The translations under genes were made by a program, and so were the position numbers. Of a stretch of DNA of 64,000 nucleotides, positions 15,846-34,655 are shown in pieces. The stretch is taken from NCBI GenBank assembly GCA_000473305.1, contig CP006772.1, positions 1,922,001 to 1,986,000 of the forward strand. The letters are read 5' to 3'. Origin of the DNA: Bacteroidales bacterium CF (GTDB lineage Bacteria > Bacteroidota > Bacteroidia > Bacteroidales > UBA932). The stretch's first letter is position 1. Every line of letters begins with the position of its first letter. Under the pieces are notes generated by a model. It saw only the letters and a program-made list of their open reading frames with translations, did not search any database and was not told the origin of the DNA.

Positions 15846-15937
15846 TATTAACAACAATACTATTCCAACGACAAGGAGCAAATATACAACATTTTACACA
15901 AACCTCTATTTCAGGCAATTAGAAAAATCAGTGCCAC
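15818..15937. repeat. Short fold-back element, copy 3 (120 bp, intact)
   Basis: Two terminal inverted repeats, 21 bp perfect (GTGGCACTGATTTTTCTAATT), at 15818-15838 and 15917-15937, separated by about 78 bp. The left repeat supplies the start of the GNAT gene. The right repeat supplies the last residues (GTDFSNC) and stop of the next secreted-protein gene. Confidence 0.85.
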
Positions 15938-17096: not shown

Positions 17097-17153
17097 AATA
17101 CTAATTGTTTGAATAGCCGGCTACAATATTTACAAAGATAAGATTTAATTTTA

Positions 17154-17555
17154 GTGGCACTGATTTTTCTAATTGCTTCATTTGTAAGGGCAATATTATA
17201 TCATAAGCCAATGTCGCAGGTTTTTCTGACTTTGTTCTCTATGACCGCTTTTATTGGAGATATATCGTCTCAGGGCTGTCCATCCTCAGTCACATTGAAG
17301 TCATAAACCTCAAAGACACTGATTTTTTTTAACGTGATTTGATTTCGTGTTTTTCCGGAGCTGCGAAACTCCTCCCTTCGGTCGTCAAACATTCTCGCTC
17401 TGTTTCGGAAAAACACTCATAAAATCACTAAAAAATCAAGGTCTTTTCGGCTTAATGTCTTCAATTGCTCCTAACTCCTGTTCCGGCTGAAAATTTCCCT
17501 GATTCTTCATAGCTCCATTAACATCTAAGCGGCATATGAGGCAATTTGACTAAAT
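17154..17555. repeat. Long fold-back element, copy 4
   Basis: Begins GTGGCACTGATTTTTCTAATTGC at 17154 and continues with the same internal blocks as copy 2 (TCTCAGGGCTGTCC, AAAGACACTGATTTTTTTTA, then the core with CTCCCTTCGGTCGTC and AATCAAGGTCTTTTCGG, ending near AAGCGGCATATGAGGCAA). The right terminal repeat is missing. It occupies most of the 490 bp between the exported-protein gene and hipA; no gene is seen there. Confidence 0.75.
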
Positions 17556-17586
17556 TTTTACATATAGAAGAAAAAACGGGTGTAGG

Positions 17587-18852
17587 TTATATACACCATT
17601 TACTCCGTTCATCCAACACTCCGGCAAACATATCTATGTCTCTTCTAGAAATCCCTAATCGTGTTGCCAGTTCTCGCCAGCCTCTTACAACACTAACCAC
17701 CTTGGAAATAATATCTTCAGCAGTTTTCTTGTTAAGCATATAGCCTTCGCAGGCATCAAGCAAAATGCCCAGATCTGCCTTATTGGTAGATGACGAGATA
17801 AGCAGACTTTGGTACTCATTCAAAGTAGGATTCATATCGTATGCAGGAGACAAGGTCCAACCTTTTGCAGTCAACAAAAAACCATGATTACGGAAATGGT
17901 CATCGCTATTGCCGATACATATATTGAAAGCTATACGGCGATAGAGTTCTTGCAGATTGTTTTCAACTTTTGTACAGTTCTGAATAATGAAGTCCACTAT
18001 ATCCAGATAACCGTGTCCGGTATTAGCATTGTCGCCGTCATTAAGCCCCAGTAGGGTAATTGCTGAGGCAAAATGAATCCGCTTTCCCTCCCGGGTTCTG
18101 TCAAAGCGTTGTGAAAGCAATGTGTGGTATTTCTCATCAGTGGCCAAAACATTGGTTCTCGCTGCATTTATATCTGCTTTTATGGCAAGCAGATGGCTGA
18201 AATGCTCCCAAAGTCCGGCATCGTAATCATCTTTTTGTGAAGGGAATTTAGCTATACAAAGTGTTTCATCTGTGTCTATCACACTGGCTTTCGGTCTTGC
18301 ACCGCCCAATGAGGATCCCGGCTGCACGAGTCGGGCAATCCACTTCCTGTCAGGCAGAACATTATTTTCTTCGCTTTTCTCTATCTCGGTACTGGCTGCT
18401 ATCAGCTCTCTGATATCTGTCAGAGGTGGGATTTTCAATGGCTCAGTCACATTTATAAATTCTCCGTCTTGAACCTTCTTGAAACGAAATGCACCCATTC
18501 GGGAGAAGTCATCAATGCCAGTCAGGAAATCGAAAGAAGAGAGCCGTCGAACCGATCGATTTTCCTCCTTTGCAGCAATCTGCTCACGGCGTAGCATCAA
18601 AGTACGTCCCCAACGATCAGGCAGGGCGTCAGAGAAACATCCGAACATATCTTTATCCGGTAGCGTATATTGCTGTCCGGGATAATTATTCAAATCATCG
18701 CTCAAAAACAAATCTCCGTGCTTTTTCAACCATTCATCGCAGAATTTGAAGGAATAACTGTCTGAGCCCCGAAGAGATTCATAGCCCAACTCGCCAACGA
18801 ATTCTATCTCCTTCAGCCAGTCAAAATCGGCATATACATATAGCATCTTCAT
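17587..18852 (-). CDS. hipA: HipA-family serine/threonine kinase toxin
   Basis: 421 residues. HipA toxins phosphorylate a glutamyl-tRNA synthetase-like target and induce persistence. The N-terminal HipA region (FSDALPDRWGR, 73-83) and the kinase domain are present. Kinase signatures are GGARPKA (184-190), the lysine of CIAKFPSQ (about 202), the catalytic loop GNSDDHFRNHGFL (314-326) and SPAYDMNP (335-342), the Mg2+-binding part. It lies 3 bp downstream of the antitoxin gene, the usual HipB-HipA order. It looks intact. Confidence 0.88.
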   Translation of the reverse strand: MKMLYVYADFDWLKEIEFVGELGYESLRGSDSYSFKFCDEWLKKHGDLFLSDDLNNYPGQQYTLPDKDMFGCFSDALPDRWGRTLMLRREQIAAKEENRSVRRLSSFDFLTGIDDFSRMGAFRFKKVQDGEFINVTEPLKIPPLTDIRELIAASTEIEKSEENNVLPDRKWIARLVQPGSSLGGARPKASVIDTDETLCIAKFPSQKDDYDAGLWEHFSHLLAIKADINAARTNVLATDEKYHTLLSQRFDRTREGKRIHFASAITLLGLNDGDNANTGHGYLDIVDFIIQNCTKVENNLQELYRRIAFNICIGNSDDHFRNHGFLLTAKGWTLSPAYDMNPTLNEYQSLLISSSTNKADLGILLDACEGYMLNKKTAEDIISKVVSVVRGWRELATRLGISRRDIDMFAGVLDERSKWCI

Positions 18853-18855
18853 CTT

Positions 18856-19176
18856 TTACTCCTTTTTTGAGGCTCGTTCCCTTGTCTTCAAGCTCAAATC
18901 CTGCAAAGCTTTCCCCAATTTGTCTTCTTTGGCAAGCCACAGAATATCATCTTCAAGTTGTAAAGCAAACAGGACACGCAGGTAAATCCCTATTGCGACT
19001 GTCGGTGCGCCTTTCTCTATTCTGAAAACAGTTAACGGAGAACAAGTTGCACGTTCCGCTACCTGAGCCACACTCAGATTCCTGCGCAAGCGAGCCAATT
19101 TAATCTGCTCTCCCACAACCTTCATCTGCTGCTCCAATTTGCGAGGCAATTTAGTACCCATTGAATTCTTTGCCAT
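18856..19176 (-). CDS. hipB: HipB-like XRE-family antitoxin
   Basis: 106 residues from the ATG at 19176 (MAKNSMGTKL); an ATG 9 bp upstream is also possible. A Cro/C1-type helix-turn-helix spans about 30-75 (LRRNLSVAQVAERATCSPLTVFRIEKG). It would neutralise HipA and repress the operon. The C-terminal tail is Lys/Glu-rich. Confidence 0.82.
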   Translation of the reverse strand: MAKNSMGTKLPRKLEQQMKVVGEQIKLARLRRNLSVAQVAERATCSPLTVFRIEKGAPTVAIGIYLRVLFALQLEDDILWLAKEDKLGKALQDLSLKTRERASKKE

Positions 19177-19181
19177 AACCA

Positions 19182-19240
19182 ACATATCATATAATATGCA
19201 AATATACTATTTTTTATTTATTTAATGATATGTTGCATAT
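19182..19240 (-). promoter_or_regulatory. hipBA promoter and candidate operator
   Basis: On the minus strand TATATTTG (plus-strand 19199-19206) fits the -7 consensus. Around it are alternating ATAT-rich half sites: ACATATCATATAATATGC just inside the start region and ATATGTTGCATAT (19228-19240, 5-bp arms). These could be HipB binding sites. This is inference from symmetry and position. Confidence 0.35.
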
Positions 19241-19284
19241 AAATGGTCGCGAAATTGAAATATATGAAAACTTGAATAGCCTCA

Positions 19285-19622
19285 CAAATAGTGTCTCAGG
19301 GGAGTCCATCCGATGTCGCATTACAGATATAAGCTTTAAAGACGCTGGTTTTTCTTTACGTGATTTGATTTCGTGTTTTTCCTGGCTGCGAAACTCCTCC
19401 CTTCGGTCGTCAGACATTCTCGCCTTTTCCGGAAAAACACTCATAAAATCACTAAAAAACCAAGGTCTTTTTCAGCTTTATATCTGTAATCGCTCCTTGC
19501 TCCCTCCGGCTGAAAATTTCCCTGATTCTGCATATCTCCATTAAATTTTAAGCGGCTAAGTGGCAAATTGACGATGCCTGCTTATGGTAAATCACTCATA
19601 AAATCACTAAAAGATCAAGGTC
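19285..19622. repeat. Long fold-back element, copy 5
   Basis: Runs from about the block GTGTCTCAGGGGAGTCCATC to AAAGATCAAGGTC. It shares the core with copies 4 and 11 and is most like copy 11 at 57.7 kb. Its right edge supplies the TGA stop of the adjacent GNAT toxin gene (ACCTTGA read on the minus strand). It fills the roughly 430-bp gap between hipB and the GNAT toxin; open frames reading through it are by-products of the palindrome. Confidence 0.75.
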
Positions 19623-20112
19623 TAAACAACTCATCCAAAGTTTTCATGACAACAAACATTTTCTTGCTGTCCGGAAGTTTGATGAAATCATACTTCTGGT
19701 AAAAATTTGCGGCCTGCTCATCTATCGGGTCAACAACGACAGCAAATGAGGCAATTAGCCCGGAATTTTCCCAGCTCCGTTTTAAAGCATCTATCAAAAG
19801 GATCTTTCCGTAGTTTTTCCCCTGATGCTTTTTGTCAATTGCAAGCCTCCCCAACAAAGTGGTCGGAATCGACTTGTAAGATGCCGGTAGTCTCTTTCTG
19901 ATTTTTTCTGAAAGATCTCCGGACGGTATACTACAATTTGACAGTGTGTAGTAGCCTATTACAGATTTTGTTTCACCATCCGCCAAAACATAGCAGGCTG
20001 ACAATTTGCGTTTAACATCCTGACCGGCCTGATGTTTCAGATAATCATTCAACGACTCCTCCCCACAGTCAAAATCATCGCGATTATGACCTTTATCCAA
20101 CAACTCAATCAT
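19615..20112 (-). CDS. GNAT toxin of a DUF1778-GNAT (TacT/AtaT-type) toxin-antitoxin pair
   Basis: 165 residues. Toxins of this group acetylate the aminoacyl moiety of charged tRNAs and block translation. The sequence starts with the typical FDCGEESLNDYLK and contains ACYVLADGETKSVIGYYTLS, then LLGRLAIDKKHQGKNYGKILL (acetyl-CoA binding), and ends with AANFYQKYDFIKLPDSKKMF. It overlaps the antitoxin gene by 8 bp. The stop codon lies in the flanking palindromic repeat, so the last few residues may be altered, though the length is normal. Confidence 0.88.
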   Translation of the reverse strand: MIELLDKGHNRDDFDCGEESLNDYLKHQAGQDVKRKLSACYVLADGETKSVIGYYTLSNCSIPSGDLSEKIRKRLPASYKSIPTTLLGRLAIDKKHQGKNYGKILLIDALKRSWENSGLIASFAVVVDPIDEQAANFYQKYDFIKLPDSKKMFVVMKTLDELFRP

Positions 20113-20407
20113 TGCTCATTTTAGACTTAGAAATAAAAGAATCATAATCAACCAAAGCATTTTTTAAAGTTTGCGAAGGATTTTTAGGATTAGTTAACGC
20201 TTCAAAAAATATTTGGCTATCTCTTTCAGATGCAATTACTTGCTCTTTTTCCTTGATTATCTCTTTTGCTTTATCATGAGCAACTCGCAGAATGAAATCA
20301 GTAAGACTTCTATAACCACCCAAATAGGCTGCTTTCTCAAAGAGTTGTTTTTGTTCCTTGGAAAGTCTGGTGTCGAATCTCGTTAGTTCTGAAGTTGTTG
20401 TGCTCAT
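20105..20407 (-). CDS. DUF1778 (TacA-type) antitoxin
   Basis: 100 residues. The N-terminal ribbon-helix-helix (TRFDTRLSKEQKQLFEKAAYLGGYRSLTD is the recognisable stretch, about 9-37) binds DNA as a dimer. The C-terminal tail (about 65-100, with NPKNPSQTLKNALVDYDS) wraps and inhibits the GNAT toxin. Translationally coupled to the toxin downstream. Confidence 0.88.
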   Translation of the reverse strand: MSTTTSELTRFDTRLSKEQKQLFEKAAYLGGYRSLTDFILRVAHDKAKEIIKEKEQVIASERDSQIFFEALTNPKNPSQTLKNALVDYDSFISKSKMSND

Positions 20408-20429
20408 AATTGACTCCTGTATTTTTATG

Positions 20430-20460
20430 CAAATGTACGGATTTTATCCGTACACACAAC
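20430..20460 (-). promoter_or_regulatory. Promoter and palindromic operator of the DUF1778-GNAT pair
   Basis: GTACGGAT-TTT-ATCCGTAC (20435-20453) is a perfect inverted repeat with 8-bp arms. It overlaps a minus-strand -7 box TACATTTG (plus-strand 20430-20437); a -33-like GTTG sits 19 bp further upstream (20457-20460). Binding of the ribbon-helix-helix antitoxin here would block the promoter, the normal autoregulation of such modules. Confidence 0.65.
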
Positions 20461-20486
20461 GCTTTTGTATAAAACTTCGGCAAGGT

Positions 20487-21752
20487 CTATTTAAACTCGT
20501 CAAATTTAGCGCGCATTGTCGGATTGCCCTGGGTCAGTTTCTTAATGGTCAAATCCTCTGCCTTTTGATTCGCCAGTCTAAGATTGTTGTCGGATGAGAG
20601 AAGGGCATCTTTTGTTTTTTGAAGGTGTAATATGGTTTTATCAATCTCGTCAATGGCCTCTTTAAATCTCCTGTTGGCAAGCTCGTAATTTCTGGCAAAC
20701 CCCTCTTTGAAAGTATTTATTCTCTCCTCAAAGTTTGTTATGTCGATATTCTGATTCCTTACCAAAGCCAGCTCTGCCTTGTATTGCATTGAGTTCATAG
20801 CCGCATTGCGCAGCAATGTAATTATTGGAATAAAGAACTGAGGACGCACAACATACATCTTATTGTATTTATGCGACACATCAACAATTCCGGAATTATA
20901 ATACTCGCTTTCAGCCTCTAAAAGCGAAACAAGAACAGCATACTCGCATCTCTTTTCAGTCCGGTCCTTGTCAAGCTCCTTCAGGAAATCCTCATTCTTT
21001 TTCTTAGTTGCAGTCTCATCCCCCTCATTTTTCATTTCAAACATTATTGAAATAATCTCGTTCCCCGCTTCGTCACTCTCCCGATAAATAAAATCACCCT
21101 TACTGCCAGATCTTGAATCGTTATCCTTTTCAAAATATGCCTTCTGAAAAGCAGTGGCTCTGATCTTATTGAACTCATTCTCACAATGCTGCTCTAGTGT
21201 CTCTCCTATCATCTTGGTTGATAGCTTCAGCTTCATATCCTTTCGAAGAGCTATCTCTTCGTCTTTCAACTTAATGATTGCATCTTTCTCGCTTAGTGCC
21301 GCCAGATGTTTTTCACTTAAGGATTTTTCAAGCAATTGTTTTTCTGTATCCTTTATTTTTACAGCATTAGCCAAATCATCGCGCTCTTTTTCGATCATCC
21401 GGACTGCCTCAGTAATAGCAAGCTTCTTCGCGACTTCCGCATTTTCAAGCTGAGACTTGATTTGCAATAATTCCGACTGTTTTTGTGCCAACTTCTGAGA
21501 CAGCTCAACCTCTTTCTGAGCTCTGAGTTCGGCCAGTTCTCTCTCTTTCTTTGCCAATTGTTCTTGTAAAGAATTTCTGATATTCGCTTCCGCAAGTTCT
21601 ACGGCACTCTCTTTTTCCTTGTCGGCAAGGTTAAGTCTGTTTTTTATCTCTTCTTCAAACTGATGGTCGCGGACTTGCTTCAAAATGTCTGCATATCCTG
21701 CTTCATCTATTTTAAATGCTTTTTTGCAATGTGGGCAAATAATTTCGTTCAT
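20487..21752 (-). CDS. DUF2130 protein with coiled coil and nuclease-like C-terminal domain
   Basis: 421 residues. Starts with a CPHC knuckle (residues 6-9), followed by a long charged coiled coil (about 30-180, rich in Lys/Glu/Ala/Gln). The conserved DUF2130 domain (about 180-350) follows. Its KGDFIYRE (D220) and IMFEMKNE (E239, K241) resemble the D...ExK arrangement of PD-(D/E)XK nucleases, though I cannot test the fold. Function unknown; it sits between a toxin-antitoxin pair and a restriction locus on the same strand. Confidence 0.75.
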
Positions 21753-21846
21753 TTTTCTGATTTTAAAATCGTCCCCGGTTCTCTATGTGTCTAATCCTGA
21801 AATAGCTCTGGTCTGTGGCTGTTTTGTGGTATTTCGTTGAAAACCG

Positions 21847-22262
21847 GGTTATAAAATTATGAATTTGGGAGTGGTTATCCAAATAATTTTTAGGCAATTA
21901 TGCGAGTGATTATGCCGGGTTTTCAATATGGCCACTTAGCCGCTTATATATTGGAGAAATACCGGATCAGGGCTGTCCATCCGATGTCGCTTTGAAGTCA
22001 TAAGCCTCAAAGACGCTGATTTTTTTTAACGTGATTTGATTTCGTGTTTTTCCGGAGCTGCGAAACTCCTCCCTTCGGTCGTCAAACATTCTCGCTCTGT
22101 TTCGGAAAAACACTCATAAAATCACTAAAAAATCAAGGTCTTTTTCGGCTTTATGTCTTCAATTGCTCCTTAAATCCCTTCTTCGGCTGAAAATTTCCCT
22201 GATTCTGCATAGCTCCATTAACTTGTAAGCGGCTAAGTGGAAAAATTGACGATGCATATCAT
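21847..22262. repeat. Long fold-back element, copy 6, with AT-rich side box
   Basis: Starts with the side box GTTATAAAATTATG (21847). It then carries TGGCCACTTAGCCGCTTA, ATCAGGGCTGTCCATC and the same core as copy 4 (nearly identical over about 130 bp), ending AGCGGCTAAGTGG and AATTGACGATGC. It accounts for most of the 566 bp between the DUF2130 gene and hsdR; no gene is seen. Confidence 0.75.
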
Positions 22263-22318
22263 TGATTATCTTTCGGTTGCGAATATCTTTGGCAAGGTCT
22301 TTCTGTTATGGGCCTCAA

Positions 22319-25300
22319 TCATAATTTCCCGCCCACACCCTTGAACTTCTCCACAAATAAGATCAGCTTTTGGAAGACGTTCTGCTTTTTGGTCAAGTAC
22401 TGGGGATTCAGGGGGCTCATTTTGGGCAGGAGGGCGTTTAGTTCGGTGCCGTTTTCGCTGGCGTATTCGCGCTTTAGGGAGGCGGTTATGTAGCGCTTGG
22501 CTTCTTCCTCGTTTAGGTTCTCTTCTGCTATCAGGGCCTGGGCTTCTACTATCTGCCTGTTTTGTGCGTATTTGAAGAACGCTTCCATTACACTCGCTTT
22601 ATCTTGAATGGTATCAAGGTCTGTCTCATTGATGAAATCTACTACCAGGCTTTCCTTTGCTCTGTTGCCTACGCTGGCACGGATGACTCTGCGGATTTCT
22701 GCAATCAAAGCCTCCTTGTCTGTAATCTTCTTGTTATGCTCGAATATTAATTCAAGGATGTAGTCCAGGTTTATCTCTTGTGATTTCAGCAGGTCTACTT
22801 CAAACACCACATCATCCCAATCAATCTTTGAATCTTCCGGATCTTTCCCATCTTTCTGGCGTCTCAGCCATTCACGGATATCATTGTATGTGGAACGGTA
22901 ATCCTGAACAGTACGTTCTTTTATCACGTCGATCTTCTGCATTTCTGCAATATCCTCATCAGTTACATAATGAGTATTTTTAAACTCCTCTACAGCAGCA
23001 GCATCACTGATGTCTACACGTTGCAGGTCTTTGAGGTTGTTAAACTCATCATAATTCTGGAGGATGTTTTCTATACGCAAGTACTCTCCAAACAGCTTAG
23101 CAAACTCCTTCTTATCTTTTTCTGTTTCAATGGCATCCGGATTGGTAAATTTCTCCTGTAACTCCCGGACTACATCTACATAACCACGGCGGGCCTCGCC
23201 GGTAACAATATCAATAAATCCCTCAAGATACTCTTTATAGCTCTTCTCAAGCAGCACATTCTTGGTATTGCTATCGCCGAAAAGAGTGATGGCATCAATC
23301 GTTGCAGTCTCCAGATTTCTAAAGGTAACAATATTCCCAAAGGTTTTTGTGGCATCATAGATACGGTTGGTACGTGAAAAAGCTTGCATCAGACCATGAT
23401 AGCGCAAGTTCTTATCTACAAACAGCGTATTGAGAGTCGGTGCATCAAAACCGGTGAGAAACATACCTACCACAATAACCAGATCTACCTCTTTGCTCTT
23501 TACACGTTTGGCCAGATCACGATAATAGTTCTGAAACTCATTGCTGTCAACACCATAACTGGTTTTGAACATCGCATTATAGTCATTGATAGCTTTCGCC
23601 AGAAACTCCTTGGCACTGCTATCCATGGCAGAAGGCTCAAATGTCTCATCCGGTATCTCACCTATCGCATTCTGCTCTTCGTTGGCAGCATAAGAAAAGA
23701 TGGTCGCAATTTTCAGAGGCTTTTCGCTCCCTTTCTGCAGGTTGTTCAATTCCTCATAATAGCATTTTGCAGCATCTACACTGTTTACCGCAAACATGGC
23801 ATTAAAACCCTTGTTGCTTCCCTGATTCCTGTGGGTCTTTATCCGGAAATTCTGTAAAATGTATTGAGATATCTCATTTATACGGGCTGGATGGAGCAAT
23901 GCCAATTTGTTTTCTGCAGCACTCAGTTTCTTCTCATCCAGCTCTGTTTCGATATCCTTAAATCTAGGACGGACATCATTGTAATCAACTTTGAACTTCA
24001 ATACCTTTTCATCTCTGATAGCATCAGTGATAACATATGAGTGCAACTCTCTTCCAAAAACACTTGCTGTGGTCTCTGCACCCAATGCATTCTCAGGAAA
24101 TATAGGCGTTCCTGTAAAACCAAACTGGTAGTACTTTTTGAACTTCTTTTTCAGGTTCTTCTGAGCCTCACCAAATTGCGAACGGTGGCATTCGTCAAAT
24201 ATAAAGACCACCTGCTTATGATAAATAGCCAAATCACCCTCACTTTTCATGAGGTTATTCAGTTTCTGAATAGTGGTTACAATAATCTTATTATCATCCT
24301 TTTCAATATTGCGCTTCAAACCGGCTGTACTCTCAGAACCATTCACACTATCGGGAGAAAATCGCTGATACTCCTTCATGGTCTGAAAGTCCAGATCCTT
24401 ACGGTCCACCACAAAAAATACCTTATCGATGAAATCAAGTTGTGTTGCCAGACGGGCAGCCTTAAAACTTGTCAGAGTCTTACCGGAACCTGTGGTGTGC
24501 CAGATATAACCGCCACCTTCAGTAGTTGACCATTTCTTCGACAGGTACGAACTTTCAATTTTCCATAACATGCGCTCTGTCGCTGCAATCTGATAGGGAC
24601 GCATGATAAGCAGAGTATCGCTTGTATCAAAAACCGAATATGTAAGCAGCACATTGAGAAGCGTGTTTTTCTGGAAAAACGTAGCCGTGAAATCCTTAAG
24701 ATCTTTAATCAACACATTGTCAGACTTTGCCCAATTCATGGTAAAGTCAAAACTGTTTTTGTCCCGCTCAACTGTATTTGCAAAATAACGGCTGTCAGTG
24801 CCGTTTGATATGACAAAAATCTGCAGGTACTTATAGAGAGAATTCTCGCTGTTAAAACTCTCTTTGGAGTAGCGATGCACCTGATTAAACGCTTCACGGA
24901 TAGCAACACCTCTTTTTTTCAGTTCCACCTGAACCAAAGGCAAACCATTGACCAATATCGTTACATCGTACCTGTTGGCCTGAGTCCCCTTCTGTTCAAA
25001 CTGAGAAATCACCTGAACCTTATTGCGAGCAATATTCTTTTTATCAACTAAGTATATGTTTTGGATATGCCCATCGTCAAAAACGAAATCATAGATATGG
25101 TTATCATGGATTTTCCTGGTTTTTTCAACCAAGCTATCACCCGGTTTGTCTAAGTACTCAAGCACAAAACGCACCCATTCAGCATCCGAAAACGTCATAT
25201 CGTTAAGCGTTTGTAGCTGAACTCTAATATTCGCCAACATCGCTTCGGGCGTATTCAAGTTTGTCGGATTCTCATACCCTTGATTGACTAAGTCCCGGAT

Positions 25301-25423
25301 AAATTCATGTTCCAATGCAGCCTCAGTCTGATATCCGGCAGGTGCATCATTCAACTCATAATACTTGGTGAATTTATCAAGTACAATGAAGTTGTTCGTT
25401 TCAGCTATGGGGTTGTAGTGCAT
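22319..25423 (-). CDS. hsdR: Type I restriction enzyme, R subunit
   Basis: 1034 residues. HsdR is the motor and nuclease of type I restriction complexes. The N-terminal PD-(D/E)XK nuclease is visible as D153 (RYDV) and E167/K169 (VELKK). The SF2 translocase has Walker A TTGSGKT (about 310-316), DECH at 410-413 and later motifs such as GFTGTP and QAFSRTNR. The C-terminal helical region that contacts the methylase follows. It appears intact, overlaps the four-helix-bundle gene by 23 bp, and is the last gene of the hsdM-dinD-hsdS-hsdR operon. Confidence 0.94.
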
Positions 25424-25781
25424 AGTTGTTAGGGATTAGGGATTTTTGAAGAGCATTTAGCATTTTGCCAACTTCTTTTATCAAGTTGATTGCTATTTCG
25501 ATGTCTGAATTGTTGAGATAATGAATTTTTACACAGATTAATAGTTGTGTTTCTAATTCCGCTTTTGAACCTTTGGCAATAGCAAGAAACTGGATAAATT
25601 CTTTTGTTGAATTTCTTCCATGCCCTTCGGCTATATTGCTTGGAATAGAAATAACCGCACGCCTAATTTGATCACTCAATGAAAATAGCTCTTCTTTAGG
25701 CAGTCTCTTAACCAAACAATACACTTCGGTTACCAACTCCATGGCTTTTTGCCAAACTATTAAATCTTTAAAATCTTTCAT
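25401..25781 (-). CDS. Four-helix-bundle protein (S23/IVP family)
   Basis: 126 residues. The signatures [14 protein letters not shown] at the start and [12 protein letters not shown] in the middle are typical of the small four-helix-bundle family first seen in 23S rRNA intervening sequences and related to Avd of diversity-generating retroelements. No rRNA or retroelement lies nearby; it is embedded between hsdS and hsdR, where such genes are often found. Its role there is unknown. Confidence 0.85.
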
Positions 25782-25817: not shown

Positions 25818-27041
25818 CTAAAAACTCAAAAGCTTATCTCTGTAGTATTCATACTGCTTTTTCCGTAGCTCAATCTCCTTTGGCAAACCCTCACTGATGG
25901 AAGTAGTGAGCGTGTCGAACTTGTCGAGAATGGCAACTATGCGGGCTTGCTCTTCGAGTGAAGGGATGGGAATTGAAAATTCCTTTACTTTAGCATCAGA
26001 AATAGATGGATAAGCAGAACCGCTTTGATTCTCTTCTACATAGTTTTTAAACTTATTGGATGTTATCCAAAAATAAATCCATTTAGGTAATATCACATCT
26101 GAGTTCGCTCTTAAAACACAATACCCAGTACTTGCAACTTCGTTTGAATATTCTTCTGTTATTAAACAAAGTCGCTGTTGCGTTGGGCGTGTTGTGGCAA
26201 AAATCACATCATTGGTTAAAACCAGTTTTTGGGCTCTGCTTGGAGCATTTTCTTTAGTAATTTCTATTGTTTCAATAATGATATTTTTCTCACGGCAAAC
26301 AGAAGTCAAATCAATATATTGATAAGATTTATTTGTATCTCGCCATCGAATATTTGAGGTTGGTATTGTTACTTCCCCCAGTGTTTTCCACTCCACTTCG
26401 CCATCCTCAAAGCTCAACAACTGCTCCTGATAGTAGTTATACTGTTTTTTACGCGCTGTAAGCTCTGCTGTAAGCTCTGCTGTAAGCTCTGCTGTAAGCT
26501 CTGTAAAACTGTCGAGAATACGAACAATTTCGGCTTGCACATAGAGCGGAGGAATAGGAATAAAGAGTTTTTCCTTAAGCATATTTGAACTCAAATTTGG
26601 TTGAGCACCGCCACCAGCTAAAGCAAATAAAAAATCAGATTTGGTCAAAATAAAATGATACAGAAAACGATTATTAAGAACTTTCTTATTAGGAATAAAC
26701 TTACCAACTCGTTGATTAAGATAGGCTTTTTCATTGAGATTATAATAACCAATTTTACCAGTAGTAGCTCCAGACATAGCAATCAAAACATCCCCTTTTT
26801 CAATAAAGTAATTAAGTGGACTTCCATTTTTATAATCATCAGGATTAAAAAATTTTACATCTGCTAAATCTACATTTATACCATCAATATTTGTTATTCT
26901 AACAATTGGTAAACCTTTATCTTTAAACAAAGTGCTTTGAAATGCAAAACCATTTTGAAAATCACACACCTCCCCCAGCGTTTTCCACCCCACCTGAACG
27001 CCGTTGAGTAGTTTCTCTATATATTGTAGTCTATTATTCAT
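25818..27041 (-). CDS. hsdS: Type I restriction specificity subunit with TAEL repeats
   Basis: 407 residues. HsdS carries two target-recognition domains, each reading one half of a split DNA site. TRD1 is about 20-165 and TRD2 about 217-360, each followed by a helical spacer (ARKKQYNYYQEQLLSF and ELRKKQYEYYRDKLLSF, similar to one another). The central spacer holds TEL followed by three TAEL units and TA (about 180-196). In EcoR124-type enzymes the number of TAEL units sets the gap in the recognised site. Both TRDs look complete. It overlaps dinD by 8 bp. Confidence 0.92.
   Translation of the reverse strand: MNNRLQYIEKLLNGVQVGWKTLGEVCDFQNGFAFQSTLFKDKGLPIVRITNIDGINVDLADVKFFNPDDYKNGSPLNYFIEKGDVLIAMSGATTGKIGYYNLNEKAYLNQRVGKFIPNKKVLNNRFLYHFILTKSDFLFALAGGGAQPNLSSNMLKEKLFIPIPPLYVQAEIVRILDSFTELTAELTAELTAELTARKKQYNYYQEQLLSFEDGEVEWKTLGEVTIPTSNIRWRDTNKSYQYIDLTSVCREKNIIIETIEITKENAPSRAQKLVLTNDVIFATTRPTQQRLCLITEEYSNEVASTGYCVLRANSDVILPKWIYFWITSNKFKNYVEENQSGSAYPSISDAKVKEFSIPIPSLEEQARIVAILDKFDTLTTSISEGLPKEIELRKKQYEYYRDKLLSF
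26455..26502. repeat. Four tandem 12-bp repeats inside hsdS (TAEL codons)
   Basis: GCTGTAAGCTCT occurs four times without error at 26455-26466, 26467-26478, 26479-26490 and 26491-26502. Because the unit is a multiple of three, gain or loss keeps the frame and changes only spacer length in the protein. Confidence 0.95.
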
Positions 27042-27888
27042 CCCTATCTTTTTTGCCCTTTAGGTTTTTCATAGCAATTCCCTTGTCTATGGTTTTTACC
27101 CTGCGTTCCAATTTTTTTATGTCTTCTTCGACAGGCAGTTCTTCGGGCTTGATACCACTTTTACCTAAAAGAGCTCTCACATCTTTATTGTTCTTAACAT
27201 GTTCGTTCGTGATATTGAGTTCGCCTTTGAGGTCGTTTTTCTTTACGTTAAAATTGGTAATCTCAGTAGCCAATTGCTTGGCTGTAATGGTAATGGTGGG
27301 CAGAAAATCGGCTAAGGGTCGGTTTTCTTTTATACCCAACTTACGTTTCATATCGCTGGTATTGAGGCCACCAAACATAGCCCAGTCTCCTTTGCTTCTA
27401 ATTCTTGCAAAGCCCGAATTGTCAACTCCTCTTTCATAAATATTCTTGGAAAGCTCGGTTTCGGTAGCAGCCAGTTTTTCGCGTGCATGCAAACGTTCCA
27501 TCAGCAGGATACGTTCTTCCAACACTTCTTGTTTTCGGGTTTGGATAGCAAAATAACTTTGGGCAAAGGCTATTTGCTCTTTCTTCGGGTCTCCGTTTTG
27601 AGCTATGAGGTAACAGGCATAGCGGGTGAGCATGATATCATCCTGCTTGCGTTCTGCCCCTGAACCAATTTTGACCATTTTGGTGACGTCAACGAAATGG
27701 TCTGAAACCGCTTCGCCCGTGGTTTCGCAACTTTCTTTTGCCTTATTAATGGTGTTTAAAAAATTACGCCAATCTGAATATCCTAAAAGTTCTTGCAATT
27801 CGCGAGCCAACCAATATTCTACGCCGTCTTGCTCGTAAGCGTATTCCTCGAAACTTTTGTTTAATCTTATGATTGTATCTTTTTCCAT
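27034..27888 (-). CDS. dinD: DinD-like DNA-damage-inducible protein
   Basis: 284 residues. The N-terminal Bro-N-like part (YWLARELQELLGYSDWRNFLNTINKA is the core, about 25-50) and the following KQDDIMLTRYACYLIAQNGDPKK match DinD, an SOS-regulated protein that in E. coli inhibits RecA filaments. A C-terminal Lys/Glu-rich helical tail is present. In many Bacteroidota a DinD-like gene sits inside type I restriction operons, as here between hsdM and hsdS. No LexA-type box was identified. Confidence 0.85.
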   Translation of the reverse strand: MEKDTIIRLNKSFEEYAYEQDGVEYWLARELQELLGYSDWRNFLNTINKAKESCETTGEAVSDHFVDVTKMVKIGSGAERKQDDIMLTRYACYLIAQNGDPKKEQIAFAQSYFAIQTRKQEVLEERILLMERLHAREKLAATETELSKNIYERGVDNSGFARIRSKGDWAMFGGLNTSDMKRKLGIKENRPLADFLPTITITAKQLATEITNFNVKKNDLKGELNITNEHVKNNKDVRALLGKSGIKPEELPVEEDIKKLERRVKTIDKGIAMKNLKGKKDRDE

Positions 27889-27928: not shown

Positions 27929-28642
27929 TCATGCCTCAATCTCTTTAATAATGACATCGATATCGGTACGTAGTTTGTTTATCTTCACCACTGTCTGGGA
28001 TATTTCTTCATTCAGTTTTGTAATATCTACCTGTTCGCGGTTGTCTTTGGCTTCCACATACGAACTTACCGAGAGGTTATAATCGTTTTCGGCAATGAGT
28101 TTGTTGTCAACGGTTTTTGCCACGTTTTCTACATCTTCCTTACTGTCGAAGATGTTCATTATCTTCTTGATGTGCTTCTCTTCCAGCACATTGTTATTGG
28201 TTACTTTCTTAAAGAATTCTTCACCACTGGCGTCTATAAACTGCGTCTTGGTATCCGGCTTATGTTTAGACAGTACCAGAATATTTACAGCGATGGAAGT
28301 TCCGTAGAATAGATTTGGAGCCAATGAGATGATGGTCTCTACATAGTTATTATCGACCAGATACTTTCTGATTTTTTGCTCCGCACCGCCACGGTAGAAG
28401 ATACCGGGGAAACAGACTATAGCTGCCCTGCCCTTGCTGGATAGATAGCTCAGGGCATGCAGCACAAAGGCAAAATCGGCTTTTGATTTGGGAGCCAACA
28501 CGCCTGCAGGTGCATCTTGCAAGGCACAGTATTTATCATTCCCGGCTGTAAATGAGTAAATTACAAGAATAAAATTCTTGATAGGTAACGATTTAGAAAC
28601 GAGCGAGGCTCTGTTTTTTTCGTCATTTTTCACAATATACAC
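27929..28642 (-). pseudogene. hsdM: Truncated type I methyltransferase HsdM (C-terminal part only)
   Basis: From about [16 protein letters not shown] onward this is the C-terminal third of an HsdM adenine methylase ([38 protein letters not shown]). The whole N-terminal region, with the AdoMet-binding loop and the catalytic NPPY/F motif, is absent. About 40 unrelated residues replace it, and the frame opens only with a GTG codon. The breakpoint is near 28560, next to the conjugative-transposon remnant. Without methylation the HsdR activity would be harmful, so either the system is silent or an intact HsdM is supplied from elsewhere. Confidence 0.85.
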
Positions 28643-28661
28643 AAAGAACGATCTTTGACAA

Positions 28662-28691
28662 CAAAGGTACGAAAGATATCTGAATCACAAT
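28662..28691 (-). promoter_or_regulatory. Candidate promoter reading into the hsdM fragment
   Basis: TACCTTTG on the minus strand (plus-strand 28662-28669) fits the -7 consensus, with ATTG about 18 bp upstream as a weak -33. It would drive the remaining restriction genes from transposon-side DNA. Inferred. Confidence 0.35.
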
Positions 28692-29018
28692 ATTTTTAGT
28701 CTTTAAATCTACACCTTTCCGGTTATTTCGGAAAACATAGCTATCTTTGTATAGACTTAAAAATGAAAGTTGAAAGCGGAAAATTACCGCTTTGATATAT
28801 ACATGATATTCGCTGACGCCACTGCGAAAACTGGTAATTTACAAAGAAGGCTACAGCAATGTTCATGCTATACTCCGTATAGCGTGGACTTGCTCTCGTT
28901 TCCTTCTTGGGCATACCAGTGCCTCGCAGTGGAACGGTGTAAGTTCCACGCTTCTTTTTTGCGTGTTACAGGCCAATAGCGGAAGGAAAGAATTACCAAC
29001 ACGTAAAATAGAAAAGAG
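28680..29018 (+). promoter_or_regulatory. Structured leader region before the RibD-C/DHFR-like gene
   Basis: 376 bp without a convincing gene. TATCTTTG at 28742-28749 fits a -7 box. The later part can form several hairpins: CTATAC-TCC-GTATAG (about 28869-28883) and GTGGAAC...GTTCCAC (about 28929-28949), the latter followed by a T-rich stretch (GCTTCTTTTTT). A 69-codon frame crosses it, but the structure argues for an untranslated regulatory leader or attenuator, as known for other genes on CTnDOT-like elements. No conserved leader peptide was identified. Confidence 0.35.
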
Positions 29019-29555
29019 ATGAAAAAGATTATCCTTTACGTTGCTGCATCGCTCGACCAGCGCATCGCAGAACCGGACGGAGACTTGGATTGGCTTACCG
29101 GATTTCCCAACCCCGAAAAAACCGATTACGGGTACAAAGACCTGCTGGGTTCGGTCGATACAGTTGTCATGGGTGGTAAAACCTACCGTGAGTTGCTGAA
29201 TATGGATGTGATTTGGCCTTATCAGAATCAACACACTTACGTCGTATCGCACCATGAATGGAGTGTGAAAGAAAAGATCAGCTTTATTACGGAGAATGTA
29301 ATAGAACGTATCAAAATGCTGCGTATTGAAGCCGGGAAAGATATTTGGCTGGTCGGTGGCGGCGAATTGATTTCGATATTGCTTGCCGCCGATTTGGTGG
29401 ATGAAATTCAAATAACTTACATTCCCGTCATACTCGGTAAGGGTATTTCACTGTTCCCGGAGCAACCCAAAGAATCAAAATGGGAATTAATAAAAAGCAC
29501 TGTATATAATTCGGATGTTTTGAAGGTAAATTATAGGCATCATAAATCGATATAA
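29019..29555 (+). CDS. Dihydrofolate reductase-like / RibD C-terminal domain protein
   Basis: 178 residues. Starts KIILYVAASLDQRIAEPDGD and continues with GDLDWLTGF, VVMGGKTYRELL and DIWLVGGGELISILLAADLVDEI, the NADPH-binding pattern of the RibD C-terminal/DHFR-like fold. Related genes occur on Bacteroidales conjugative transposons; the physiological substrate is unknown and it should not be assumed to give trimethoprim resistance. A short hairpin terminator follows. Confidence 0.82.
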   Translation: MKKIILYVAASLDQRIAEPDGDLDWLTGFPNPEKTDYGYKDLLGSVDTVVMGGKTYRELLNMDVIWPYQNQHTYVVSHHEWSVKEKISFITENVIERIKMLRIEAGKDIWLVGGGELISILLAADLVDEIQITYIPVILGKGISLFPEQPKESKWELIKSTVYNSDVLKVNYRHHKSI

Positions 29556-29586
29556 AATCTGCCTGATGCCCAAAAAAACGCCTGAC

Positions 29587-29607
29587 AAGAGAATACTCTT
29601 TTTTTTC
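29587..29607 (+). terminator. Short Rho-independent terminator
   Basis: AAGAG-AATA-CTCTT followed by a run of eight T. The stem is short but well placed 31 bp after the reductase stop. Confidence 0.55.
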
Positions 29608-29673
29608 TTTTAATTTTAAATTACTTATTATTAGATTATTAGAAAAAAAACAAAATTAAATAACGCAAAATAT

Positions 29674-29724
29674 TTTGCAGAATTTAAACGACTGTTTAAA
29701 TTTGCATAAAATAATCGTTTAAAA
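29674..29724 (+). promoter_or_regulatory. Autoregulated promoter of the first tetR gene with operator
   Basis: TTTG (29674-29677), 19 bp, TAAATTTG (29697-29704). The near-palindrome TTTAAACGACTGTTTAAA (29683-29700) covers the spacer and -7 box. A half site ATCGTTTAAAA follows at about 29714. The same operator sequence recurs before the CoA-activase gene. Confidence 0.7.
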
Positions 29725-29728
29725 CAAT

Positions 29729-30343
29729 ATGGCAAAAATACAATCATCCAACGTAAGAGAGAGGATACTTGATGTTGCACGGGAATTGTTTGTAGCAAAA
29801 GGTTATGCTGCCACAAGCATACGCGATATAGCAACGGCATCTGATGCTAATGTTGCTCATGTCAAGTATTATTTTGGATCTAAAGCCGATCTTTTTGAAA
29901 TCATCTTTGATGAAGCGTTTGAGATTCTTGCAAACAGGGTTTTCTCCGCATTAAACTCAGACATGCCTTTTGAGGAGATGATAGAAAATTGGATCAATGC
30001 CTACTATGAACTGCTGCCTGAGTACCCGCAGATACCCATGTTCATTTTGAATGAAATAAGTCACAGTCCCGAAGCATTAGTCAAAAAAATCCTCAAAAAA
30101 AATCCTCAACGGATATTTAGCAGGTTCTCAGACAGGATGGAAGATGAGATTAGAAAAGGAACGGTCAGGCCTGTTCCTGTATTGGATTTTGGGTTGAATG
30201 TATTGTCGTTATGTGTATTCCCATTTATGTTCAGGGGATTTGTTTTAAGGATAGCAAACATGTCAAACAATGACTATAATGCGTTATTAAAAGAGCATAA
30301 ACAATATGTAATTGATTTTGTCTTAAGAGCTTTGCAACCATAA
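29729..30343 (+). CDS. TetR/AcrR-family regulator
   Basis: 204 residues. The N-terminal helix-turn-helix is clear (RILDVARELFVAKGYAATS, IRDIATASDANVAHVKYYF, about 12-52), followed by a helical ligand-binding domain. It is flanked on both sides by copies of the TTTAAACG...CGTTTAAA operator and so probably represses itself and the downstream CoA-activase gene. Confidence 0.88.
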   Translation: MAKIQSSNVRERILDVARELFVAKGYAATSIRDIATASDANVAHVKYYFGSKADLFEIIFDEAFEILANRVFSALNSDMPFEEMIENWINAYYELLPEYPQIPMFILNEISHSPEALVKKILKKNPQRIFSRFSDRMEDEIRKGTVRPVPVLDFGLNVLSLCVFPFMFRGFVLRIANMSNNDYNALLKEHKQYVIDFVLRALQP

Positions 30344-30359
30344 ATTTTTTTGCCATCAG

Positions 30360-30377
30360 TTTAAACGATCGTTTAAA
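30360..30377 (+). promoter_or_regulatory. Perfect 18-bp palindromic operator before the CoA-activase gene
   Basis: TTTAAACGATCGTTTAAA is exactly self-complementary. It lies 33 bp before the ATG and matches the operator in the tetR promoter, marking the activase gene as a likely target of that regulator. Confidence 0.7.
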
Positions 30378-30410
30378 AATCAGTATTGAAATTTGTAGCA
30401 TAATACGCTG

Positions 30411-33400
30411 ATGAAAACAAATAATATATGCAAAATAGGAATTGATATAGGCTCTACGACATTGAAAGTTGTCGTACTGAATTTCCTTGGGGAAATAATC
30501 TACAAGGTCTATCGACGCCATAAAGCCGCTTTTAATAAACTCCTTATAGAAGAAATGAATAATATAAAATCCCTTTCCCCAGGGTCAAAATTTACGATCA
30601 GCATTACAGGTTCCGCTGGTATGGGAATTTCCGAGCATACAGGTATTTCGTTTGTTCAGGAAGTGGTTGCTTCCATTAATGTAATCAAGAATAAGTATCG
30701 AGACACACATACAATGATAGACTTAGGCGGAGAGGATGCCAAGATTGTCTTTTTCGAAGATGGAAGGCAGCCTGATATCCGAATGAATGGTAGTTGTGCC
30801 GGAGGAACAGGCGCTTTTATAGACCAAATGGCAGACCTGATGAATATATCGGTCGAAGAACTTGCCGAACAAGCCATTAAATACAAAAAAATATATCCGG
30901 TAGCTTCCCGCTGCGGGGTATTTGCGAAAACCGATGTACAGAACCTGATCTCACGAAATATTCCCCGAGCTGATATTTCAATGTCTATATTTCACGCTGT
31001 GGCGGTGCAGAGTATCACTACTCTTGCCCGTGGATGCGAGATCAGACCAAAGATACTCTGTACAGGCGGCCCCTTGACTTTTATTCCGGCTTTACGTAAG
31101 GCGTTTACCGAGGTGCTGGATGTTGACGAATCCGAACTCATACTTCCCGAAAACAGTGAATATTTTCCGGCATGGGGCGCTGCGATGAATAGTACGGAAG
31201 AACGTTCTGCACAGGAGATAGACCTGCTTATACAGAAACTCGAAACAAGAGGTTATAACCATGTGGAACATTTGCCTGCTTTGTTCGACAGTAATGAAGA
31301 GTACCGTTTGTGGAAGCAATCCCGTAAGATAAAGCAGTTGAAACGGGCTGAATTAGGGACCAGGAAACATATTGACTGTTTCCTCGGCATAGATTCCGGC
31401 TCTACAACGACGAAGATCCTTGTCATGGATGAGTCGGAAAACATCGTCTATTCGTTTTACGATTCTAACCTGGGAAACCCTCTCAGAAAGGTCGTGGAGG
31501 GGCTGAAAAAGTTTTCACAGGAAGTCAAACGAAAAGAAATATCGCTGAGATTCATTTCCTCGGCCGTGACCGGTTATGGGGAGGATTTGGTGAAATCGGC
31601 TTTGAACCTGGATTATGGCATCGTGGAGACAATGGCACACCTGTCCGGGGCACAATATGTTGATCCGGATGTGTCGTTTGTTTTGGATATCGGCGGGCAG
31701 GATATGAAATCTATTTTTACACATGACGGGGTAATCTCTAATATTGAATTGAATGAAGCCTGCTCATCGGGTTGTGGCTCTTTTCTTCAGAACTTCGCCT
31801 CGACGATGAACATGAACCTGCCTGAATTTACAGAAGCGGCCTGTTTGGCTGAATATCCGGGCGATTTGGGTTCGCGCTGTACGGTGTTTATGAACTCTAA
31901 AGTGAAACAATTATTGCGTAAAAACGCTTCACTGGGAGATATAGCAGCCGGACTGTCATACTCTGTCGTAAAAAATTGCCTGTTCAAAGTACTCAAAATA
32001 TCGAACCTTAAACTGTTGGGAGAACATATTGTCGTTCAGGGCGGAACATTTCGTAACGATGCAGTTTGGCGCGCCTTGGAAATGTTGTCAGGGAAATCGG
32101 TTAGCTCGACCGACCACCCTGAGTTGATGGGCGCATTAGGGGCGGCGCTGTATGCAAAAAAGATGTGGCAGAAAAACAGAACTTATACCTCATTCCCTGG
32201 ATTAGATTTCTTACCTGATGTGGATGATATTGATACAAAGGAACTTCAATGCAAGGGCTGTACCAATAAATGTTCTATTCTTCGTTTCAGATTTGAGAAT
32301 GGGAATACTTGTTATGCAGGGAATAAATGCGAAAAGGTGTTTTACAATAAAACTACTGCACCAGAAAAAGGATATAATGCATTCGAGGAAAAGAATAACA
32401 TACTTTTTAGCCGTGATAATGGCAAAAGAGGGACTACTATAAGGAAAATAATTGGGATACCCCGTGTACTGAATATGTTTGAAAATTATCCTTTTTGGCA
32501 TACGCTGTTCACGAAGTGCGGCATGGAGGTAGTCCTTTCCCCTGAATCCAATACCACCCTTTATCAAAAAGGAGTAGGGAGTATTATGTCGGATAATATT
32601 TGTTTTCCGGCCAAATTGGTACACGGACATATATTGGCATTGGTCGAACATGGCATTGACCGTATATTTTACCCAATGGTCATAAAAGAGGGGAAAGAGT
32701 TTCGGTCTTCAGTCAACTCCTTTAATTGTCCGGTAGTGAGCGGTTATCCCGATGTTGTCAGGAGTTCGATGGACCCGGAGGAGAAATATGGTGTCCCTTT
32801 CGATAAACCGGTAATTACGTTCAGCAACGACAAAGCCCTTGAGAAAGCATGCTATAATTATTTATCATCGCTGGGAGTATCTGGGTACGTGTTTAATACG
32901 GCATTTGCAAAAGCTCAGGAAGAACGAAAAAATACAACGAAAAGATTGGTCGCTGACCAGAAAGTCTTGTTCGACAAAGCTGTTAGGGAGAACAAACTCG
33001 TATTTGTAGTAACCGGCAGACCTTATCATGCAGACCCTTTAATTCATCAAAAAGTGGGGCAAATACTCTCTGATATGGGAGTCGATGCTTTTACTGACGA
33101 CATCTTCCGTGAGGATGAAAACGACGGATTCCGTAAACTCAATATCGTAACCCAATGGTCATATCCTAACAGGGTTGTAAAGGCAGCGATGGAAGTTGCG
33201 AAGCTTCCGGAGAATGTACAACTGATCCAGCTTAATTCATTTGGTTGCGGCCCCGATTCGTTCTTTATGGATGAAGTAGGAAAAATACTCCGGCAAGGTG
33301 GAAAAAACCACACGATATTGCGCCTTGACGAAATTGCCAGTTCCGGATCTGTCAGGCTACGTATGCGTTCGTTGATAGAATCGTTAAAAGTTGTCAGAAC

Positions 33401-34655
33401 CGGATATATTGAAAACGTAAAAACATTTGAAGGTTATAAAACCACTTACAAAAAAGAAGACCGGAAGAAAACAATACTGGTACCGTGGTTCGCCGATTTT
33501 CTTTCTCCATTCATTCCTGCAATCGGAGAACTGGCCGGGTATAAGATCGTTAATCTGCCTAAAACGAACAGAGCCTCTGCCGAAGCCGGGCTGGTATATG
33601 GACATAATGAAGTATGCTATCCGTCAACGTTAGTATTGGGAGATATTATTACGGCATTACAATCCGGAGAATATAATTCGGATGATGTAGTTGTGGCTAT
33701 TACACAAACCGGCGGACAGTGCCGGGCGACCAATTATGTGGCACAAATAAAATCAGGACTCGAAAATGCGGGATTTTCCCACGTTCCTGTTTTGGTTTTA
33801 TCTACAGGAGCAGTATATCAAAACGAACAAAAAGCATTCAAAGTACCGGTGCTTAAAATCATCAATATTATCATATATGCCCTTCTATATGCTGACGCTC
33901 TCTATCAGATGTACAGCTTAACAATCGTAAGGGAAAGAGAAAAAGGCTATGCTCAACAATTGTTTGATTTTTATGTAGGTATGGGGATAAATGCGATTAG
34001 GGAAAATGATCATAAGGCTTTATTATCTTCGTTGGAACAGGCTGTAACTGATTTTAATCGGTTACCACTATACGATTACGAGTTTACTAAAGTCGGGCTA
34101 ATTGGTGAAATCTATGTAAAATACAACAGTTACGGCCAGGCTCATATTACCGAGTGGCTCCGGTCGCAGAATATGGAGGTTGTAACTCCTCCTATCCTTG
34201 ATTTTGTGATGCAGTATTTTGTCAACTCAGAAGTAAACCTCAAAAATGGCGTAATAAGAGGTAGTATCATGAAGCATCTACTGAACCCTGTCTTTTGGAA
34301 GTACATGAACAACCGGATCACGAAGGTGGAAAAAATCATGGAAAAATATCGTTTTTATACAGCTTCCGAGTCGATATACACCAAAGCCGAATATGCATCG
34401 GAAATACTCGACTTGTCTAATCAGTTTGGAGAAGGTTGGTCTGTGGCAGCAGAAATAGCGTGCTATGCCCGTAAAGGCATCATCAGGGTTGTTTGCGTTC
34501 AACCGTTCGGTTGTATTGCTAACCACATTGTCGCTAAAGGAATAGAAAAACGGTTAAAGAAATTCTATCCGGCAACGAATCTGCTTTATCTGGATATTGA
34601 CGGGGGAATGGCTGAAGTTAATCTTCAAAACAGACTTCACTTTTTAATCAACTAA
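30411..34655 (+). CDS. Giant 2-hydroxyacyl-CoA dehydratase activase-related protein
   Basis: 1414 residues fusing two ASKHA-fold ATPase domains of the BadF/HgdC activase type with C-terminal dehydratase-like (DUF2229-type) regions. Domain 1 starts KIGIDIGSTTLKVVVL and has its cluster-binding cysteine in NGSCAGGTGAF (about 126). Domain 2 starts CFLGIDSGSTTTKILVMD near 320, with NEACSSGCGSF near 450. A Cys-rich knot (CKGCTNKCSILRF) lies near 620. Activases use ATP and a [4Fe-4S] cluster to send a low-potential electron to a dehydratase. The substrate is unknown; fatty-acid or redox roles are guesses. Flanked by two TetR genes. Confidence 0.85.
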   Translation: MKTNNICKIGIDIGSTTLKVVVLNFLGEIIYKVYRRHKAAFNKLLIEEMNNIKSLSPGSKFTISITGSAGMGISEHTGISFVQEVVASINVIKNKYRDTHTMIDLGGEDAKIVFFEDGRQPDIRMNGSCAGGTGAFIDQMADLMNISVEELAEQAIKYKKIYPVASRCGVFAKTDVQNLISRNIPRADISMSIFHAVAVQSITTLARGCEIRPKILCTGGPLTFIPALRKAFTEVLDVDESELILPENSEYFPAWGAAMNSTEERSAQEIDLLIQKLETRGYNHVEHLPALFDSNEEYRLWKQSRKIKQLKRAELGTRKHIDCFLGIDSGSTTTKILVMDESENIVYSFYDSNLGNPLRKVVEGLKKFSQEVKRKEISLRFISSAVTGYGEDLVKSALNLDYGIVETMAHLSGAQYVDPDVSFVLDIGGQDMKSIFTHDGVISNIELNEACSSGCGSFLQNFASTMNMNLPEFTEAACLAEYPGDLGSRCTVFMNSKVKQLLRKNASLGDIAAGLSYSVVKNCLFKVLKISNLKLLGEHIVVQGGTFRNDAVWRALEMLSGKSVSSTDHPELMGALGAALYAKKMWQKNRTYTSFPGLDFLPDVDDIDTKELQCKGCTNKCSILRFRFENGNTCYAGNKCEKVFYNKTTAPEKGYNAFEEKNNILFSRDNGKRGTTIRKIIGIPRVLNMFENYPFWHTLFTKCGMEVVLSPESNTTLYQKGVGSIMSDNICFPAKLVHGHILALVEHGIDRIFYPMVIKEGKEFRSSVNSFNCPVVSGYPDVVRSSMDPEEKYGVPFDKPVITFSNDKALEKACYNYLSSLGVSGYVFNTAFAKAQEERKNTTKRLVADQKVLFDKAVRENKLVFVVTGRPYHADPLIHQKVGQILSDMGVDAFTDDIFREDENDGFRKLNIVTQWSYPNRVVKAAMEVAKLPENVQLIQLNSFGCGPDSFFMDEVGKILRQGGKNHTILRLDEIASSGSVRLRMRSLIESLKVVRTGYIENVKTFEGYKTTYKKEDRKKTILVPWFADFLSPFIPAIGELAGYKIVNLPKTNRASAEAGLVYGHNEVCYPSTLVLGDIITALQSGEYNSDDVVVAITQTGGQCRATNYVAQIKSGLENAGFSHVPVLVLSTGAVYQNEQKAFKVPVLKIINIIIYALLYADALYQMYSLTIVREREKGYAQQLFDFYVGMGINAIRENDHKALLSSLEQAVTDFNRLPLYDYEFTKVGLIGEIYVKYNSYGQAHITEWLRSQNMEVVTPPILDFVMQYFVNSEVNLKNGVIRGSIMKHLLNPVFWKYMNNRITKVEKIMEKYRFYTASESIYTKAEYASEILDLSNQFGEGWSVAAEIACYARKGIIRVVCVQPFGCIANHIVAKGIEKRLKKFYPATNLLYLDIDGGMAEVNLQNRLHFLIN

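What the first reader, a model, noticed from the sequence alone, without database searches (positions are those of the whole stretch)
26455..26502. TAEL spacer repeats in HsdS, a possible specificity switch
Four exact 12-bp units encode the TAEL spacer. In EcoR124I/EcoR124II, two versus three TAEL units change the recognition gap by one base, so slippage changes specificity in one step. Here the array is longer, which should widen the gap or be unstable.
Basis: partly seen in the sequence, partly recalled or inferred. Interest (0 to 1): 0.62.

Follow-up and report, generated by a model that had tools for sequence, protein, structure and literature searches.

The report
Ordinary spacer repeat, disabled restriction system
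A bacterial DNA-recognition protein carries a well-known four-amino-acid repeat at one of its two usual lengths, but the gene for the partner DNA-methylating enzyme has lost its front part, so the repeat probably changes nothing in this genome.

Summary
The repeat is real: 4.1 exact copies of a 12-bp unit at 26455-26503, in frame in hsdS (25818-27041, minus strand) of a type IC restriction-modification locus. "Longer than EcoR124I/II" is wrong. The helix between ILDxF and RKKQY is 17 residues, three TAEL units, one more than the EcoR124 chain in PDB 7bst, i.e. the EcoR124II number. The fourth DNA unit arises because flanking codons (TEL...TA) fit the same period. In 100 helices from 99 of 101 related loci the length was 17 in 48, 13 in 50, 9 in 2, never longer. 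The predicted gap is the ordinary N7-like one.

hsdM is a remnant. It matches residues 321-515 of an intact relative, lacks the SAM and NPPY motifs, and stops at 28516, where the degenerate tail of an integrase gene begins. No other close hsdM was found in this one-contig genome. hsdS and hsdR are open; hsdR is conserved against a sister species (dN/dS 0.054), so the loss looks recent. Gap change by this repeat is in print. Strain-level repeat counts and methylation could not be examined.

The parts
26455..26503 (-). 12-bp tandem array, 4.1 exact copies, encoding TELTAELTAELTAELTA (three TAEL units plus fitting flanks) in the D1 helix of HsdS
25818..27041 (-). hsdS, 407 aa, type I specificity subunit, open frame
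   Evidence: Pfam Methylase_S E 9.5e-45; PDB 7bst E 7.9e-52; AF2 model mean pLDDT 88.5
27929..28516 (-). hsdM remnant: only the part matching residues 321-515 of intact HsdM (open frame runs on to 28684 without homology to HsdM)
28517..28702 (+). tail of a tyrosine integrase gene, with stop codons (about the last 20 codons), and the sequence after it
   Evidence: 81% over 187 nt to L109 and 79% over 192 nt to L108 (from 28513); translation; longer relative L112 is phrog_216 integrase
22319..25423 (-). hsdR, 1034 aa, full length
   Evidence: Pfam HSDR_N, SWI2_SNF2, T1R_D3-like, EcoR124_C; dN/dS 0.054 against G018
25401..25781 (-). four-helix-bundle (23S rRNA IVP-like) gene between hsdS and hsdR
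   Evidence: Pfam PF05635
27034..27888 (-). DinD-like (BRO-N domain) gene between hsdM remnant and hsdS
   Evidence: Pfam Bro-N; NCBIfam NF008573
29019..29555 (+). RibD_C / dihydrofolate-reductase-like gene beside the integrase tail; same neighbourhood in L109 and, by alignment, L108

Best explanation
This is an ordinary type IC HsdS whose first connecting helix (D1) holds three TAEL units, the number reported for EcoR124II, EcoDXXI and EcoPrrI. In an active enzyme this helix sets the distance between the two target recognition domains and so the gap in the recognition site; by analogy the gap would be the standard longer one (N7-like). The array could in principle gain or lose 12 bp and shift the gap by 1 bp, as in known relatives. 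In this genome, however, hsdM has lost codons 1 to about 320 and its upstream region; it now abuts the tail of an integrase gene, most simply through a deletion. Without a whole M subunit the methylase (M2S) and the nuclease (R2M2S) should not form, so the system is most likely inactive and the repeat has no present effect. Shown: repeat, helix length, length distribution, hsdM truncation, junction, integrase homology. Inferred: gap length, deletion as the event, loss of methylation and restriction.
For: Repeat and frame. Helix 17 aa against 13 in 7bst. 48 of 100 related helices are 17 aa, 50 are 13, 2 are 9. One continuous D1 helix 166-208 and an opposite helix 362-405 in the model. hsdM remnant matches profile positions 153-310 of 311 and residues 321-515 of intact HsdM, without motif DPAAGSG (223) and NPPY (300). 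Junction with integrase tail at 28516/28517. The two other HsdM-like genes in the genome are 33% and 28% identical.
Against: hsdS and hsdR are open and hsdR shows dN/dS 0.054 against G018, so the system was selected until recently and may be whole in other strains. No methylome, no reads and no second genome covering hsdS and hsdM. A plasmid outside the one-contig assembly could carry an hsdM. Pfam support for the integrase label is weak (E 0.02).
Confidence: 0.85

Rival explanations
1. Live specificity switch: in this strain the array slips between two and three or more TAEL units and an active enzyme alternates between recognition gaps.
For: Exact 12-bp units; 13- and 17-residue helices both common in relatives; known in EcoR124 and NgoAV; E. 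coli plasmid loci L146 and L148 carry two and three exact units with near-identical N-terminal halves.
Against: hsdM truncated and no close hsdM elsewhere in the assembly. L146 and L148 differ in their C-terminal TRD, so they are not a clean pair. No strain data.
Confidence: 0.06
2. The hsdM-integrase junction is an assembly or sequencing artefact and the operon is whole in the cell.
For: Only one genome shows the junction; G018 ends before it.
Against: One-contig genome, 99.66% complete; the integrase side is degenerate and continues into the same RibD-like neighbourhood as in L109 and L108; no other copy of the upstream stretch in the genome.
Confidence: 0.07
3. Another M subunit works in trans with this HsdS, so methylation persists.
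For: Two other HsdM-like genes exist, at C1:469353 and C1:2362868.
Against: They are 28% and 33% identical to the type IC HsdM query and have HsdS genes of their own nearby. Type I families were divided partly by complementation tests (PMC3874165 passage).
Confidence: 0.03
4. The array is longer than in known enzymes and gives a widened or unstable gap.
For: 4.1 DNA units against the two or three quoted for EcoR124I/II.
Against: Counted in the same way, two-TAEL and three-TAEL plasmid relatives give tracts of 28 and 40 nt (L146, L148), so flanking bases add about a third of a unit there and a whole unit here; the helix itself is 17 aa. 17 of 78 other helices have tracts of 49 nt or more.
Confidence: 0.01

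Closest known systems
EcoR124II (EcoR124/3), type IC, GAA N7 RTCG, three TAEL repeats
   Same: Three TAEL units in D1 (PMC3874165); same domain order; HsdS 407 aa aligned along its length with the EcoR124 chain; HsdR has the EcoR124_C domain
   Different: Different TRDs; here hsdM is truncated; DinD-like and four-helix-bundle genes lie within the operon; no activity shown
NgoAV of Neisseria gonorrhoeae (type IC, LEAT repeats)
   Same: Tetrapeptide repeat in the central part of HsdS whose number tracks the gap: 1 repeat N6, 2 repeats N7 (PMC6789123 passages)
   Different: Other repeat sequence and an additional poly-G frameshift; variation among strains was observed there, not here
Type IC locus of Marinifilum sp. 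D714 (L014)
   Same: Closest kind of intact operon examined: HsdM 79% identical to the remnant over residues 321-515, HsdS 55% identical in alignment A2, HsdR 1035 aa
   Different: Whole HsdM of 515 aa; D1 of 13 residues (two TAEL); no gene between hsdM and hsdS

Membership tests
Type IC restriction-modification system | HsdS with tetrapeptide repeats in the central helix | tested here: met
   TELTAELTAELTAELTA in D1; PMC10030836 passage names TAEL among such repeats
Type IC restriction-modification system | HsdR of the EcoR124 kind | tested here: met
   PF12008 EcoR124_C E 3.5e-72
Type IC restriction-modification system | Whole HsdM methylase subunit | tested here: not met
   Residues 321-515 only; TIGR00497 208 bits, below cut-off 242.75. 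So: remnant of a type IC system, not a complete one
Type IC restriction-modification system | Methylation and restriction activity, complementation within the family | not testable with these tools
   needs methylome or plating tests
EcoR124II-like three-TAEL spacer | D1 helix one TAEL longer than EcoR124I | tested here: met
   17 against 13 residues
   17 residues; none of 100 related helices is longer
Phase-variable type I specificity (phasevarion) | Repeat number varies among isolates or reads, with changed specificity | not testable with these tools
   no isolates or reads at hand; the sister contig ends before hsdS

The most novel reading that the evidence does not exclude
In other strains of this lineage hsdM is whole and the exact 12-bp array slips between two and three units, making a gap-switching type I methylase; in this strain the switch was frozen by a recent integrase-linked deletion that left hsdR and hsdS, still bearing the marks of selection, behind.
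Probability: 0.15. Interest if true: 0.3.

Novelty: new member of a known kind. Interest (0 to 1): 0.12.

Why it matters
It closes a tempting but mistaken lead: counting DNA units overstates the helix by one TAEL, and the actual length is one of the two common ones. It also shows that a repeat in hsdS should not be read as a switch before checking that hsdM is whole. A small by-product: in 100 related helices D1 takes only 9, 13 or 17 residues, which fits (but does not prove) three TAEL as the upper limit set by the opposite helix.

Tried and rejected
Array longer than known: rejected by helix length. Chance or codon-bias origin of the exact repeat: rejected. Another hsdM in trans: own genome searched with an intact relative; only the fragment and two distant genes, plus a weak further N6_Mtase match. 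Sister-genome test of repeat number: of 25 genomes of the genus only G018 has a close HsdR; it matches window 15809-25676 at 97.9% but its contig ends inside the four-helix-bundle gene, and the RibD-like gene and 29560-33500 were not found in it, so it decides nothing about hsdS or hsdM. Upstream stretch as plasmid DNA: no match in 'plasmids'. As a repeated element in the own genome: one copy. Rfam at gathering score: only a tRNA at 11977-12050 in the window. Promoter scan 28500-29050: 2 sites found, 1.6 expected from shuffles. Integrase label by Pfam: nothing at E 0.001, E 0.02 and below the cut-off when loosened; the PDB search gave no integrase; PHROGs gave integrase, E 3.1e-10. The L112 gene used for that is itself a short frame (193 aa).

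Full report
Observation. The array exists as described: 26455-26503, period 12, 4.1 copies, no mismatch. Neither mononucleotide shuffles of the window (0 of 20) nor random synonymous coding of the same peptide (0 of 200,000) reproduce it. It lies in frame in hsdS (25818-27041, minus strand, 407 aa).

Length. The useful measure is the helix between ILDxF and RKKQY. Here it is TELTAELTAELTAELTA, 17 residues. In PDB chain 7bst_A it is TALTAELTAELNM, 13 residues (the listing names the chain EcoR124II, the entry title says EcoR124I, and two TAEL units fit the latter). The difference is one TAEL. The review PMC3874165 (section 25 read in full; passages) says EcoR124I has two units and a 6-bp gap, EcoR124II three units and a 7-bp gap, and that three, also found in EcoDXXI and EcoPrrI, appears to be the optimum. 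So this protein has the EcoR124II number.

Survey. D1 was measured in 99 of them (not L068, L082), 100 helices in all because L038 has two: 17 aa in 48, 13 aa in 50, 9 aa in 2 (rows set aside are listed under Tried and rejected). None is longer than 17. In one search, 17 of the 78 other helices have exact tracts of 49 nt or more. The opposite-helix (D2) segments that the pattern caught are 17 aa. The sample is biased towards relatives of this HsdS, though none of the six search peptides lies in the repeat. E. coli plasmid loci L146 and L148 have near-identical N-terminal halves with two and three copies of one exact 12-bp unit, but their C-terminal TRDs differ, so they illustrate unit change without proving a single-step switch.

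Structure. The AF2 model built from the window protein and 34 relatives (mean pLDDT 88.5, pTM 0.67) has one continuous helix 166-208 through the array and an opposite helix 362-405. Foldseek lists HsdS structures, among them 1yf2, 3okg, 5ybb, 2y7c and 7bst.

The methylase gene. The hsdM frame next door matches only positions 153-310 of the 311-position N6_Mtase profile and falls below the TIGR00497 cut-off (208 against 242.75 bits). Against whole HsdM of Marinifilum (L014) it matches residues 321-515 at 79% identity; the motifs DPAAGSG (residue 223) and NPPY (residue 300) lie in the missing part (their roles as SAM-binding and catalytic motifs are recalled knowledge). HsdM homology ends at 28516. 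From 28517 (L109) or 28513 (L108) to 28702 the sequence instead matches the 3' end of an integrase gene and what follows it, at 81% and 79% identity; the window's copy reads [18 protein letters not shown] with stops. A longer relative of that gene in L112 is an integrase by PHROGs (phrog_216, E 3.1e-10), only weakly by Pfam (E 0.02). The stretch 28540-29018 has matches in 20 of 149 genomes of the family. In L109 the integrase tail is followed by a RibD-like gene as in the window, and the alignment of L108 shows the same. The simplest account is a deletion between an integrase gene and hsdM; that is inference.

No substitute found. The own genome (one contig, 2,657,245 bases, completeness 99.66%) has two other HsdM-like genes, 33% and 28% identical to the query, with HsdS genes nearby, and a weak fourth N6_Mtase match. 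Whole type IC-like HsdM genes do exist in the family, for example in G028 (82%) and G196 (80%).

How recent. Genome G018 of the same genus matches window 15809-25676 at 97.9%. hsdR there differs by 28 synonymous and 6 non-synonymous changes, dN/dS 0.054; neighbouring genes with synonymous changes gave 0.021 to 0.225. hsdR therefore evolved under constraint for most of that time, so the loss of hsdM is probably recent. This also speaks against my reading in part: the system may be whole elsewhere in the lineage. G018's contig stops before hsdS.

Verdict. A real repeat of standard length and known mechanism, in a locus that is probably inactive in this genome. Gap change by such repeats is in print: TAEL in EcoR124 (PMC3874165) and LEAT in NgoAV, where strains with 1 repeat methylated an N6 motif and strains with 2 an N7 motif (PMC6789123, passages). 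PMC10030836 (passages) names tetrapeptide repeats as usual for type IC HsdS. Text searches used. Passages of PMC5608340 (Prevotella intermedia) had no hit for 'TAEL' or 'tandem repeat'.

Noticed in passing
window 27034-27888; L157 6002-6628; L001 2706-3587: A regulator-like gene sits between hsdM and hsdS: DinD-like with BRO-N domain in the window (PADLOC PDC-S13, E 2.2e-117), and unrelated-looking frames at the same place in L157 (G196) and in the genome's own other locus L001 (ORF lists; not scanned).
   Followed up: partly
window 57720-58019, 19286-19586, 21957-22253, 17267-17492, 15103-15408; shorter pieces near 47440-47680 and 49800-49930: A dispersed repeat of about 300 bp, 75-91% identical between copies, in the window and also in the sister contig L169. 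Nature unknown.
   Followed up: partly
window 55887-55921, 57632-57668, 59252-59312: Short arrays with a period of about 7 bp (TTCACTC / TTCACTA-like) recur over 3.5 kb.
   Followed up: no
window 17587-20407: A HipA-like gene with a small helix-turn-helix-looking partner, and a GNAT acetyltransferase gene overlapping a small upstream gene: two toxin-antitoxin-like pairs next to the restriction locus (HipA and GNAT by Pfam; partner labels by eye).
   Followed up: no
window 30411-34655: A 1414-aa acyl-CoA dehydratase activase-type protein (TIGR00241, two stretches) between two genes that look like TetR-type regulators (by eye).
   Followed up: no
window 38144-38200, 40563-40627, 43217-43307: Imperfect 24-bp tandem repeats, 2.4 to 3.8 copies.
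   Followed up: no
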